Source: Myxococcus xanthus
GTDB taxonomy: Bacteria > Myxococcota > Myxococcia > Myxococcales > Myxococcaceae
Direction: 5' to 3'
NCBI RefSeq assembly: GCF_006402735.1
Contig: NZ_CP017174.1
Location: 7,978,001 to 8,042,000, forward strand
Length of the DNA stretch: 64,000 bases
The position numbers were made by a program, and so were the translations under genes. This document shows positions 10,043 through 27,986 of this stretch, piece after piece. Within the stretch, counting starts at the first letter, position 1, and the number at the start of each line of letters is the position of its first letter. Under the pieces are notes generated by a model. It made no database searches. It was not told the DNA's origin and saw only the letters and a program-made list of their open reading frames with translations.

Positions 10043-10771
10043 ATGGCGAGCCGGGATGGCACGCGGGCGGATGACGCCCAGGAGACGGGCAAGCCGCCCG
10101 CACGGCCCGGAGGCCGCCGCGAGGCCCACCGCCGAGAGCGCGAGCAGGCCCTGGAGGACGCCGCGCTGAAGCTGTTCCTGGCGCGGGGCCTGGATGGCGT
10201 CACCATCGACGACATCACCCAGGCGGCCGGAGTGGCCAAGGGGACGTTCTACCGGTACTTCGACGACAAGGCGGCGCTGGTGGACGGCCTGCTGGAGCCG
10301 GTGCGCCGCGAGCTGCTGGCCGGGCTGGAGACGTGCGGCCACTCCCTGGCGGAGGCGCGCAACGTGGAGGCCATGTTCGACGCGTACCGCGCGGTGGCGG
10401 CGGTGATTGCCAGTGCCCTCCTCCAGTACCCGGGCGTGGTGCGGCTGTACCTCCAGGAGTCCCGGGGGCCCGCCGTGGGGGCGCGGACGAAGGTGGCGGA
10501 GCTGGCGCGGCTGGTGGCGCGTCACGCGGTGGACATCACGCAGAAGGCGCACACCAGCGGGCTGCTGCGCCCCATCCGTCCGGCGGTGAGCGGACTGGCG
10601 GTGGTGGGCGCCGTGGAGCGGCTGCTGCTGGCGGTGCTGAGCGAGGAGGACATCGGCAACCCGCTGGAGCTGCCGGACGCGCTGACCACGCTGGTGCTGG
10701 ACGGGCTGCGCCTGCCCCCAGAGGTCCGTCCCCGTCGCCGGAAGTTGGACGGAGGCCCCAAGCGCCCCTAA
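10043..10771 (+). CDS. TetR-family transcriptional regulator
   Basis: The protein is 242 residues from ATG 10043. A TTG at 9998 would extend the frame but lies inside the operator, so I reject it. After a charged N-terminal tail, the HTH lies at about residues 45-85 (DGVTIDDITQAAGVAKGTFYRYFDDKAAL), a textbook TetR helix-turn-helix. The C-terminal ligand domain is helical and leucine-rich. It lies 10 bases before a lytic transglycosylase gene, so the two may share a transcript. The adjacent divergent lipid hydroxylase is the likely regulated target. Confidence 0.92.
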   Translation: MASRDGTRADDAQETGKPPARPGGRREAHRREREQALEDAALKLFLARGLDGVTIDDITQAAGVAKGTFYRYFDDKAALVDGLLEPVRRELLAGLETCGHSLAEARNVEAMFDAYRAVAAVIASALLQYPGVVRLYLQESRGPAVGARTKVAELARLVARHAVDITQKAHTSGLLRPIRPAVSGLAVVGAVERLLLAVLSEEDIGNPLELPDALTTLVLDGLRLPPEVRPRRRKLDGGPKRP

Positions 10772-24257: not shown

Positions 24258-27200
24258 GTGACGTCTCGTTGGGTGCTGGGTCATGCCCTGGAAGAACGGC
24301 TGCCATCGCTCCGGATGCGCGGCACTCCGGAGGCGGTGGACGAGGCACGCGCGCGGCGCAGGCTGGAGCGCTGGCGCAAACAAGAGCCCCTCACGCGGGA
24401 CTCGCTCTGGGCCCAGCGCCTGCGAGCCTCGGGGCTGACGGAAGCGGAGCTGCACACCCTCCTGGGGGAACCCGCGGAGGCGCTGCATGCACGCATGGGA
24501 GCGCCTCCGCCGTGGCAACGCGTCATCGAACAGGCCTACACGTCAGAGGTATCGCCGCCCTTCTCCTGGCCGGAGCCCACGCCACCGGGCGCGGCCCTGC
24601 TCGGACTGGTCGAGCCACTTGTCCACGAGGCACACGCACGGCTCGTCTCCGCCCTGGACACCTGCCTGCGTGACATGCCCGCAGCGCCGTTCGAGCCAAA
24701 GCACGCGGCTCGCATGCTGCTCGCGCCGCTCCCGCGGATGTTGATGCCCTTGCTGGGACGGACACTCGCGGTGGAGCTGCGCATCGCTCAGCTCGAAGGA
24801 CGGCTCCAGGGAGACACGCCCGAAGCGCGCTTCCAGGACTTCGCCCAGCACCTCCGGCGACGCGACGTGGCGCTCGACATCCTTGCCCGCTACCCGGTGC
24901 TCGCGCGGCAAGCCGTGGAGTACATCACCGCGTGGGAAGCCACGGGCGTGGAGCTGATGCAGCGGCTGGCTCGCGACGCCGCCGCGCTGTGGCACCGCTT
25001 CCACTACGGCGTTCCTCCCGGCCCGCTGGTGGAGGCCCAAGGCGGTCTGTCAGACCCGCACCGAGGTGGACGCACCGTCTTCCTGCTCCGCTTCGCCTCG
25101 GGACTGCGGCTCGTGTACAAGCCGCGCCCGCTCACGGCGGAAGCCGCCTTCCAGCAACTCCTCTCCTGGCTGAACGCGCGCGGCCTCACGCCGCCGCTGC
25201 GCACGGTGGAGGTCCTCTCCTCGGACGGCTACGGGTGGATGGAGTACGTGGAGGCCGCGCCGTGCCAGTCGGCCGAGGAAGTGCGGCGCTTCCATCTGCG
25301 GCAAGGCGCCCTCGTCGCACTGCTCTACGCGCTGGACGTCACCGACATCCATTACGAGAACCTCATCGCGGTGGGCGAGCACCCCGTCCTGGTGGACCTG
25401 GAGACGCTCTTCCATCCGCACACGCTCGCCGCCTCCATCCGGGACGTGGAGAAGCAACCCGGTGCGGTGCTGAACGGTACGGTGCTCAAGAGCGGGCTGC
25501 TGCCCCAACCCGCCTGGCGCGCGAAAGACGGCACGGAGGTGGACTTCAGCGCCCTGGGCGCCAGCGAGGGACAGCTCACGCCACTGGGCTACCTGGTGGC
25601 GACGGCGCACGGCACGGACCAGCTCCGCTTCGAGCGGCGGCGGATGGAGATTCCAGGCGCGGCGAACCGTCCTCGCATGGAAGGACAGGACGTCTCCGTG
25701 GCGGTGCAGGCGGACGCGCTCGAGCAGGGGTTCTCCACCCTGTACCGGCTGCTCGCCGAGCACCGGGACGCGCTGCTCGCCCCTGAAGGGCCGCTCGCGG
25801 CTTTCGAGCACGCGCCCGTGCGAGTGCTCTTTCGCGGCACGGCCAGCTACGACGCCCTTCTGCACGAGAGCATGCACCCCCATGCGATGGGGGATGCGCT
25901 GGACCGGCAGCGCTTCTTCGACCACCTCTGGCTCGCCGTGAAGGAGCGCCCGTACCTGGCGGCCCTCATCCCTTTCGAGCAGGAGGAATTGCAGCGCGGC
26001 GACATCCCCCGCTTCACCGCCCTGCCCGGCTCGAAGGACCTGTGGTCAGGCGCGGGCCGCCACCTCCCTGGCTTCTTCGACGACTCCGGCTTGGAACGAG
26101 CGCGACGGCGCCTGGCGGAGCTGTCGCCGGATGACCACGAGCGGCAGCTCGGCTTGCTGCGAAACGCGCTCGACCGGGTCCGGTTGGCGGCAAGCCCCGG
26201 CGCCCGCCCCCGCTATCCGTTCCACGAGCCACCCGAGCCCGCGCATCCAGACACGCTGCTGGCGGCCGCACGGCGCGCGGGAGAGCGATTGGTGGCCCTG
26301 TCGTTCTCCGGCGCGGGACATTCCCACTGGCTGTCGCTCGAAAGGTCCGACACGGAGGAGTGGCGGCTCGTCCAGGTGGGGACAGACTTCTACCAGGGGC
26401 TCTCAGGCATCGCGCTGGTGCTGGCGCAGCTCGGTGCCCTGACGGGCGAAGCACGCTTCACGCAGGCGGCCCGAGGCGCATTGCGCCACCTGACCTGGCG
26501 CCTGGAGGCCGCGCCAACACAGGTCCGTGGCGTGGGCATCCTCAATGGCTGGGGCGGCATTCTCTACGCCCTGACCCACCTGGGGGCACTGTGGGGGGAA
26601 CGCGCGCTGTTCGCGACCGCCGAGTCCTTCGTGGACGCCATGGCTTCCCGTGTGGAGCAGGACGAGCACCTGGACCTGGGCAGTGGCTGCGCGGGCGCCC
26701 TGCTCGGCCTGCTGACGCTCGTGGGGCAGCATCCTTCCGAGCGAGCGTCACGACTGGCGCGCGTCTGTGGGGAGAAGCTGCTCCAGACGGCCACGCCCCA
26801 GTCCCAGGGTCTGGGCTGGCTTTCACCCGCGACCGGCGGACAGGCGCTGTGCGGACTGGCACATGGAGGAGCGGGCATCGCGCTGGCGCTGCTGAGGCTG
26901 GCCTCCGTCACGGGAGAGTCCCGCTTCCACACTACGGCAATGGAGGCGCTGGCGTACGAGCGTGGCCAGTTCTCGCCCGAGGCCGGCGACTGGCCCGACC
27001 TCCGCGCCGACGCAGGGATGCACGGCGGTGATGGGCCGGCCTTCATGTGTGGCTGGTGCAATGGCGCACCCGGCATCGGGTTGGCGCGCATCTCCGGACT
27101 GCCGCTGCTCGATGACCACCGGGTGCGCGAGGAAATCGCAGCGGCGGTCCGCGCCACGCTCGCGGGAGGCCTGGGCTACAACCATGGCCTGTGTCATGGC

Positions 27201-27455
27201 GACCTGGGCAACGTGCTCTTCCTGCTGGAGGCCGCGCGCGCACTGCACGATGACACGCTGCTGCGGCGCACCTATCAGCTCGCGGGCGGCATCCTCCAGG
27301 GCATCGAGTCGCACGGCTATCAGCATGGCCTGCCCGACAGCATCGAGACACCGGGGCTGATGGTGGGGCTCGCGGGCATCGCCCACGGCCTGTTGCGGCT
27401 CGCGGCGCCGGAGCGGGTGGCGGACGTGCTCTCCGTGGCCCCTCCCGTCTCGTGA
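24258..27455 (+). CDS. lanM: Class II lanthipeptide synthetase
   Basis: The protein is 1065 residues from GTG 24258, with GGAG at 24249. The N-terminal two thirds form the dehydratase: GLRLVYKPRPL (nucleotide-binding Lys) and LDVTDIHYENLIAVGEHPVLVDLETLFH, the kinase-like LanM motif that phosphorylates and eliminates Ser/Thr. The C-terminal cyclase has GSGCAGALLGL, LAHGGAGIALAL, GWCNGAPGIGLAR and LCHGDLGN; zinc ligands are Cys934, Cys979 and His980. Length is typical for bifunctional LanM. It should act in the cytosol on the precursor encoded 87 bases downstream. No LanT peptidase/transporter, immunity gene or regulator is adjacent, so export and leader removal must occur elsewhere. Confidence 0.95.
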   Translation: MTSRWVLGHALEERLPSLRMRGTPEAVDEARARRRLERWRKQEPLTRDSLWAQRLRASGLTEAELHTLLGEPAEALHARMGAPPPWQRVIEQAYTSEVSPPFSWPEPTPPGAALLGLVEPLVHEAHARLVSALDTCLRDMPAAPFEPKHAARMLLAPLPRMLMPLLGRTLAVELRIAQLEGRLQGDTPEARFQDFAQHLRRRDVALDILARYPVLARQAVEYITAWEATGVELMQRLARDAAALWHRFHYGVPPGPLVEAQGGLSDPHRGGRTVFLLRFASGLRLVYKPRPLTAEAAFQQLLSWLNARGLTPPLRTVEVLSSDGYGWMEYVEAAPCQSAEEVRRFHLRQGALVALLYALDVTDIHYENLIAVGEHPVLVDLETLFHPHTLAASIRDVEKQPGAVLNGTVLKSGLLPQPAWRAKDGTEVDFSALGASEGQLTPLGYLVATAHGTDQLRFERRRMEIPGAANRPRMEGQDVSVAVQADALEQGFSTLYRLLAEHRDALLAPEGPLAAFEHAPVRVLFRGTASYDALLHESMHPHAMGDALDRQRFFDHLWLAVKERPYLAALIPFEQEELQRGDIPRFTALPGSKDLWSGAGRHLPGFFDDSGLERARRRLAELSPDDHERQLGLLRNALDRVRLAASPGARPRYPFHEPPEPAHPDTLLAAARRAGERLVALSFSGAGHSHWLSLERSDTEEWRLVQVGTDFYQGLSGIALVLAQLGALTGEARFTQAARGALRHLTWRLEAAPTQVRGVGILNGWGGILYALTHLGALWGERALFATAESFVDAMASRVEQDEHLDLGSGCAGALLGLLTLVGQHPSERASRLARVCGEKLLQTATPQSQGLGWLSPATGGQALCGLAHGGAGIALALLRLASVTGESRFHTTAMEALAYERGQFSPEAGDWPDLRADAGMHGGDGPAFMCGWCNGAPGIGLARISGLPLLDDHRVREEIAAAVRATLAGGLGYNHGLCHGDLGNVLFLLEAARALHDDTLLRRTYQLAGGILQGIESHGYQHGLPDSIETPGLMVGLAGIAHGLLRLAAPERVADVLSVAPPVS

Positions 27456-27542
27456 AGCGGCTTCGTTCCCGACGAACTCCGGCACCGCGAGGGTTGGCGG
27501 TCCGTTGGCAGTACCCCCCAACAACCCAAGAGGAGCAGCACC

Positions 27543-27785
27543 ATGAGCCACAGCGACAAGAACCACATCCTCCGCGCCTGGCGTGACGCCGACTACTACG
27601 ACAGCCTCTCCGACGCGGAGCGCGCCGCGCTTCCGGCCAGCCCCGCGTCCGTCATGGAGCTGGAGGATGCGACGCTGGCGTTCATCACCGGCGGCGATGC
27701 CGAGGCCTCCTGCCCCGCCACCCCCACGCCCAACGAGCTCACCTGTCTCTATACGAACTGCGGGCGCATTGCCTGCTGCCGCTGA
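27543..27785 (+). CDS. lanA: Lanthipeptide precursor, mersacidin/lichenicidin-like leader
   Basis: The 80-residue precursor has a GAGGAG ribosome site 8 bases upstream. The leader (residues 1-51) starts with NHILRAWRDADYYDSL, has an acidic helix ending MELEDATLAFITGG, and closes with the double-Gly cleavage motif (Gly50-Gly51). This pattern is seen in mersacidin/lichenicidin-family precursors. The core, residues 52-80, has exactly five Cys (57, 68, 73, 78, 79) and five Ser/Thr (56, 60, 62, 67, 71), so up to five (methyl)lanthionine rings are possible. It lacks the exact CTxTxEC lipid II motif; CLYTNC occupies a similar place. Activity is unknown. It is the direct partner of the LanM upstream. 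Confidence 0.92.
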   Translation: MSHSDKNHILRAWRDADYYDSLSDAERAALPASPASVMELEDATLAFITGGDAEASCPATPTPNELTCLYTNCGRIACCR

Positions 27786-27851
27786 GCGACGAGACGTGAG
27801 CTGACGCGGAAGGGCCGTGGCGGCTCGACGTGAATACGGACGTGGTCTGCG

Positions 27852-27883
27852 CAGGGGAGCGGCGGAGGAATGCCGCTCCCCTG
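27852..27883 (+). terminator. Strong stem-loop ending the lanthipeptide operon
   Basis: A perfect 12-bp stem (27852-27863 with 27872-27883, core AGGGGAGCGGC) encloses an 8-base loop and is followed by TTTG. It lies between lanA and the convergent DUF1501 gene, so it may terminate in either direction. Confidence 0.75.
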
Positions 27884-27986
27884 TTTGCCCCGGACGGAGT
27901 TGCCGTGACGCGCCCACAGCGACTTCACACGGCATGAACAAGCCGCAGGAGCTGTCATCTTGGCGCCGAGAAGCTGAGCGCAGCGC

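What the first reader, a model, noticed from the sequence alone, without database searches (positions are those of the whole stretch)
24258..27883. Minimal class II lanthipeptide locus in a myxobacterium
A complete LanM and a precursor with GG leader, core of 29 residues, five Cys and five Ser/Thr, closed by a strong terminator. There is no transporter, protease, immunity or regulator nearby. Myxobacterial lanthipeptides are little studied, and the core lacks the exact lipid II-binding CTxTxEC motif, so a different target is possible.
Basis: partly seen in the sequence, partly recalled or inferred. Interest (0 to 1): 0.75.

Follow-up and report, generated by a model that had tools for sequence, protein, structure and literature searches.

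The report
Transporter-less mersacidin-family lanthipeptide locus
A soil predator bacterium (Myxococcus) carries an intact two-gene kit, one enzyme and one small peptide, for making a ring-stapled antibiotic-like peptide of the well-known mersacidin family; the export gene missing here is probably borrowed from a sister kit elsewhere in the same genome.

Summary
Window 24258-27455 encodes a full-length class II lanthipeptide synthetase (LanM) with its catalytic and zinc motifs; 27543-27785 encodes an 80-residue precursor (51-residue GG leader, 29-residue core, five Cys, five Ser/Thr); a strong hairpin follows at 27851-27884. The leader is a clear member of NCBI's mersacidin/lichenicidin family, so the kind of system is known; the core is new.

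The locus is intact and in the same place in nine Myxococcus species. All five Cys and three core Ser/Thr positions (5, 16, 20) are kept in all nine, while the rest of the core changes fastest.

The genome explains the missing transporter. A sister locus 4.7 Mb away has the closest paralogous LanM, three precursors and a C39-ABC transporter (LanT); all nine genomes with the window locus have it, against 2 of 18 without. Export and cleavage in trans is the best explanation, inferred and not shown. The sister locus corresponds to the published MXAN_2853-2857. A third copy in this genome is decayed.

No ortholog core has the lipid II motif CTxTxEC, so a mersacidin-like target is not supported. 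Myxococin comes from a different type of cluster. Verdict: new member of a known kind.

The parts
24258..27455 (+). lanM, class II lanthipeptide synthetase (1065 aa), N-terminal DUF4135 dehydratase, C-terminal LanC-like cyclase
   Evidence: TIGR03897 974 bits; PF13575 and PF05147; aligned over 908 residues to LicM2 structure 6st5; YKPR 287-290, DIHYEN 363-368, VDLET 379-383, WCNG 933-936, CHGD 979-982 kept in all nine orthologs apart from D[IM]H
27472..27513 (+). conserved intergenic block between lanM and lanA, with an invariant GG-N10-GC (27496-27497 and 27508-27509); candidate second promoter or regulatory element, function unproven
   Evidence: nearly invariant in nine orthologs and in the decayed paralog; spacing is that of sigma-54 promoters (own knowledge), hexamer match poor
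27543..27785 (+). lanA, precursor peptide, 80 aa
   Evidence: TIGR03898 74.0 bits, cut-off 23.5; nine orthologs
27543..27695 (+). leader peptide, residues 1-51, ending ITGG; L-12, L-7, I-4 before the cut
   Evidence: TIGR03898 match at residues 8-51; invariant apart from a few substitutions; the three hydrophobic positions are those named for C39 recognition in PMC10885120
27696..27782 (+). core peptide DAEASCPATPTPNELTCLYTNCGRIACCR
   Evidence: invariant Cys 6, 17, 22, 27, 28; Ser/Thr 5, 16; Thr 20; Pro 7, 10, 12 in all nine
27851..27884 (+). transcript-end hairpin, 14-pair stem, 6-base loop
   Evidence: fold of 27786-27900 z -4.8; stem kept in all nine orthologs

Best explanation
This is an intact two-gene class II lanthipeptide locus of the mersacidin/lichenicidin leader family. 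LanM binds the leader, dehydrates core Ser/Thr and closes thioether rings onto Cys; the likeliest rings are a C-terminal overlapping pair (Thr16 to Cys22, Thr20 to Cys27 or Cys28) plus one from Ser/Thr5 and one or two from the Thr/Ser of the proline-rich stretch. The modified peptide is then cut after GG and exported in trans by the C39-ABC LanT of the sister locus at 3.29 Mb, whose own three precursors have the same leader type. Shown: genes, families, catalytic motifs, conservation, sister locus and LanT. Inferred: modification, ring pattern, trans export, biological role (secreted peptide used against competitors or prey, or in the extracellular matrix).
For: LanM and leader family matches. 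Nine species keep the pair at one chromosomal site beside mtnA-mtnP-hydrolase. Purifying selection: LanM dN well below dS (0.02-0.20 vs 0.10-0.70); leader dN 0-0.035. All five Cys and Ser/Thr 5, 16, 20 invariant while the rest of the core diverges. Sister locus with LanM 54% identical, three TIGR03898 precursors and a LanT of about 730 aa with C39, membrane and ATPase domains. LanM tree puts orphan and sister LanMs as sister groups (100/99) with matching species order. LanT locus in 9 of 9 genomes with the window locus, 2 of 18 without (Fisher 1.2e-5, ancestry-confounded). Both leaders have L-12, L-7, I-4 and GG (GA in one sister precursor); a sister precursor also has Asp after the cut (GG|DFC). 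In M. xanthus DK1622 two lantibiotic-synthesis genes of the sister operon are down in sgmT and digR mutants, so that LanT-bearing locus is expressed (PMC3509222).
Against: No expression, mass or activity data for this locus. Co-occurrence may reflect shared descent only: most of the nine are close relatives. A second C39-containing ABC protein at 2.15 Mb, beside an ORF resembling a membrane fusion protein, could be the exporter instead. No immunity gene is known.
Confidence: 0.72

Rival explanations
1. Same peptide and enzyme, but another protease or transporter matures it: the C39-ABC protein at 2.15 Mb with its neighbouring fusion-like protein, or a general secreted protease after release by lysis.
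For: The 2.15 Mb protein has C39 and ABC domains and is widespread in the genus. Mersacidin and lichenicidin need a second, separate protease (PMC10885120), and the stretch GDAEAS/T-C resembles premersacidin GDMEAA-C.
Against: Its C39 match is weak (60 against 126 bits for the sister LanT) and similar proteins occur in many genomes without any TIGR03898 precursor.
Confidence: 0.22
2. A relic: the locus lost its transporter and is no longer used.
For: A third copy in the same genome is decayed: only the last about 160 LanM residues remain and the precursor core is frameshifted.
Against: The window pair is intact in nine species with purifying selection on LanM and leader, invariant catalytic motifs and Cys, conserved intergenic block and hairpin.
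Confidence: 0.05
3. A lipid II-binding mersacidin-type antibiotic (a rival on the target only).
For: Leader family, short N-terminal Ser/Thr-Cys, C-terminal TCLxTxC followed by Cys, loosely like the mersacidin C and D rings.
Against: The motif CTxTxEC (PMC3857288) or TxTxEC (PMC7268733) is absent, and none of the nine orthologs has an acidic residue in that ring (CLYTNC, CLNTAC, CLFTPC).
Confidence: 0.12

Closest known systems
Mersacidin/lichenicidin family type 2 lantibiotics (TIGR03898)
   Same: Leader family well over cut-off; LanM class; GG-type cut; GDxE[AS]x-C junction like premersacidin GDMEAA-C
   Different: No CTxTxEC; no lanT, immunity, regulator or LanD at the locus; proline-rich middle and CC near the C-terminus
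Sister locus MXAN_2853-2857 of M. xanthus (PMC3951391, PMC3509222) and its counterpart at 3.29 Mb here
   Same: Closest LanM paralog group; same leader type
   Different: Has LanT and three precursors here; cores end in CTPCPPxHC, unlike the window core
Myxococin (MfuM/MfuC/MfuP; J. Am. Chem. Soc. 2023, cited in PMC10885120)
   Same: Myxococcus class II lanthipeptide
   Different: Needs a stand-alone LanC and an M61 peptidase (own knowledge); no stand-alone LanC exists in the window's genome; the matching cluster in another Myxococcus (L063, M61 protein like PDB 7xyo) has an unrelated precursor

Membership tests
Class II lanthipeptide synthetase (LanM) | TIGR03897 over cut-off, DUF4135 plus LanC-like domains | tested here: met
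   974.3 bits against 304; PF13575 and PF05147
Class II lanthipeptide synthetase (LanM) | Dehydratase motifs and Cys/Cys/His zinc ligands present | tested here: met
   Motifs present and conserved in nine orthologs; aligned with LicM2; residue roles from own knowledge of CylM/LanC
Mersacidin/lichenicidin family precursor | TIGR03898 leader over cut-off | tested here: met
   74.0 bits against 23.5
Mersacidin/lichenicidin family precursor | Double-glycine-type cleavage site | tested here: met
   ITGG at residues 48-51, L-12/L-7/I-4
Mersacidin-type lipid II binder | CTxTxEC / TxTxEC core motif | tested here: not met
   Absent in all nine orthologs; motif from PMC3857288 and PMC7268733
Class II lanthipeptide | Thioether rings in the product | not testable with these tools
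   Needs mass spectrometry
Myxococin-type cluster | Stand-alone LanC in the genome | tested here: not met
   PF05147 finds only two LanMs and one LanM remnant

The most novel reading that the evidence does not exclude
Two paralogous lanthipeptide loci in Myxococcus, separated long ago, still share one C39 transporter in trans, so that one exporter secretes two unlike peptide families, one of them a core with a new ring pattern and a target other than lipid II.
Probability: 0.35. Interest if true: 0.5.

Novelty: new member of a known kind. Interest (0 to 1): 0.33.

Why it matters
It adds an intact, conserved lanthipeptide with a new core to a group of predatory bacteria with few characterised ones. 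It lies in a place that mining by transporter gene (as in PMC3951391) would miss, and gives a simple test of transporter sharing between paralogous RiPP loci. If active it would be a mersacidin-leader peptide without the lipid II motif.

Tried and rejected
Core against PDB sequences: no match up to E 10. Sigma-70 promoter scan: none found. DigR-type binding site upstream of this lanM: only 4-mismatch matches, expected by chance in 82% of shuffles, and not conserved in all orthologs; rejected. Intergenic RNA structure: no better than shuffles (z 0.6); rejected as an RNA element. Neighbouring alpha/beta hydrolase as part of the locus: present in all 27 genus genomes, with or without the locus; rejected. 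Myxococin identity: rejected. Genes between lanA and DUF1501 in two genomes (G060, G067): opposite strand, by eye no transporter. The 2009 LanM-mining paper was not held.

Full report
Observation. lanM runs from a GTG at 24258 to a stop at 27453-27455 (1065 aa), with GGAGAAGG just before it; lanA runs from 27543 to 27785 (80 aa) behind GAGGAGC. LanM scores 974 bits against TIGR03897, cut-off 304, has DUF4135 and LANC_like domains, and aligns over 908 residues with the solved LicM2. LanA scores 74.0 bits against TIGR03898, the mersacidin/lichenicidin family, cut-off 23.5. The core has 29 residues with 5 Cys and 5 Ser/Thr. A 14-pair hairpin lies at 27851-27884; it is kept in all nine orthologs, though its U-tract is poor and the simple scan did not call a terminator.

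Neighbourhood. Flanking genes are housekeeping: class II aldolase, mtnA-like, mtnP-like and alpha/beta hydrolase upstream; DUF1501, two class III aminotransferases and an aldehyde dehydrogenase downstream. The hydrolase occurs in all 27 genomes of the genus searched, with or without the locus, so it is not a part. The same order is found around the locus in the related genomes; in two of them (G060, G067) about 3 kb of unrelated opposite-strand genes lie between lanA and DUF1501.

Distribution and conservation. Window-type precursors occur in nine Myxococcus genomes at 78-100% identity, and in no other of 195 genomes of the phylum. Named records among them are Myxococcus sp. CA023, M. vastator, M. 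xanthus AM003 and a record labelled Comamonas that groups with Myxococcus. Between species LanM is under purifying selection (dN 0.02-0.20 against dS 0.10-0.70), the leader hardly changes (dN 0-0.035), and the core changes fastest (dN up to 0.42; short, so rough). Yet all five Cys, Pro 7, 10 and 12, Ser/Thr 5 and 16, Thr 20, Leu 18 and Gly 23 of the core are invariant. That is the pattern expected of a ring-bearing core whose ring positions matter. LanM motifs YKPR, D[IM]HYEN, VDLET, WCNG and CHGD are kept in all nine; their roles are from own knowledge of CylM and LanC enzymes.

The missing transporter. The genome is one contig of 9.32 Mb. A second LanM (54% identical) lies at 3.29 Mb with three TIGR03898 precursors and a C39-ABC transporter of about 730 residues with its domains complete. 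By its gene content this is the counterpart of MXAN_2853-2857 of M. xanthus DK1622, described by LanT-based mining (PMC3951391); in that strain two lantibiotic-synthesis genes of the operon are down in sgmT and digR mutants (PMC3509222). In the LanM tree the window group and the sister group are each other's closest relatives (100/99) with the same order of species, so both are old and passed down together. All nine genomes with the window locus have the sister locus with LanT; of the 18 without it, two have it (Fisher 1.2e-5). Descent explains part of that. Both leaders have Leu at -12, Leu at -7 and Ile at -4, the residues named for C39 recognition (PMC10885120), and a sister precursor, like LanA, has Asp after GG. 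Export and cleavage in trans by the sister LanT is therefore the best explanation; it is inferred. A rival exporter, a C39-ABC protein at 2.15 Mb, cannot be excluded.

Processing and rings. The junction GDAEAS-C (GDAEAT-C, GDTEST-C, GDTEAT-C in relatives) resembles premersacidin GDMEAA-C, where a second protease trims the remnant (PMC10885120); a two-step trimming is possible here, untested. Ring predictions are inference from invariant positions.

Target. The lipid II motif CTxTxEC (PMC3857288) or TxTxEC (PMC7268733) is absent; the corresponding stretch is TCLYTNC, TCLNTAC, SCLFTPC or TCLFTPC, with no acidic residue. A mersacidin-like mode of action is not supported; the target is unknown.

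Known relatives. Myxococin needs a stand-alone cyclase and an M61 peptidase. The window's genome has no stand-alone LanC-like gene. A cluster with LanM, LanC, C39 transporter and an M61 protein closely matching PDB 7xyo exists in G060, with an unrelated precursor. The description of myxococin itself rests on own knowledge and on its citation in PMC10885120 and PMC11251773. No held paper on the window locus was found.

Verdict. Ordinary in kind, sound in detail: a new, intact, conserved member of a known family, whose only unusual feature is the probable use of a transporter encoded 4.7 Mb away.

Noticed in passing
L062 6260-7070 (G000:C1 about 6.833 Mb): A third, decayed copy: only about the last 160 residues of LanM survive, and the precursor keeps its leader and GG while the core is frameshifted after TCPNTPP.
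   Followed up: partly
window 27472-27513: The lanM-lanA intergenic block is nearly invariant in nine species and in the decayed copy, with an invariant GG-N10-GC spacing as in sigma-54 promoters; no RNA structure beyond chance.
   Followed up: partly
G004, G003, G007 (for example L024, L025, L038): Genomes of a related genus (g3) hold up to 13 mersacidin-leader precursors scattered over many contigs with very different cores, suggesting wide use of enzymes or transporters in trans.
   Followed up: no
L063 5672-16546: Myxococin-like cluster (LanM, LanC, C39 transporter, M61 peptidase) in another Myxococcus genome (G060), with a likely precursor at 10326-10514 minus.
   Followed up: partly
L047: Record titled Comamonas sp. 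KCTC 72670 carries this Myxococcus locus and synteny; it looks mislabelled.
   Followed up: no
L024, L025, L026, L027, L028 and the sister locus L061: A separate core family ending in CTPCPPxxC is shared by sister-type loci across several Myxococcaceae genera.
   Followed up: no
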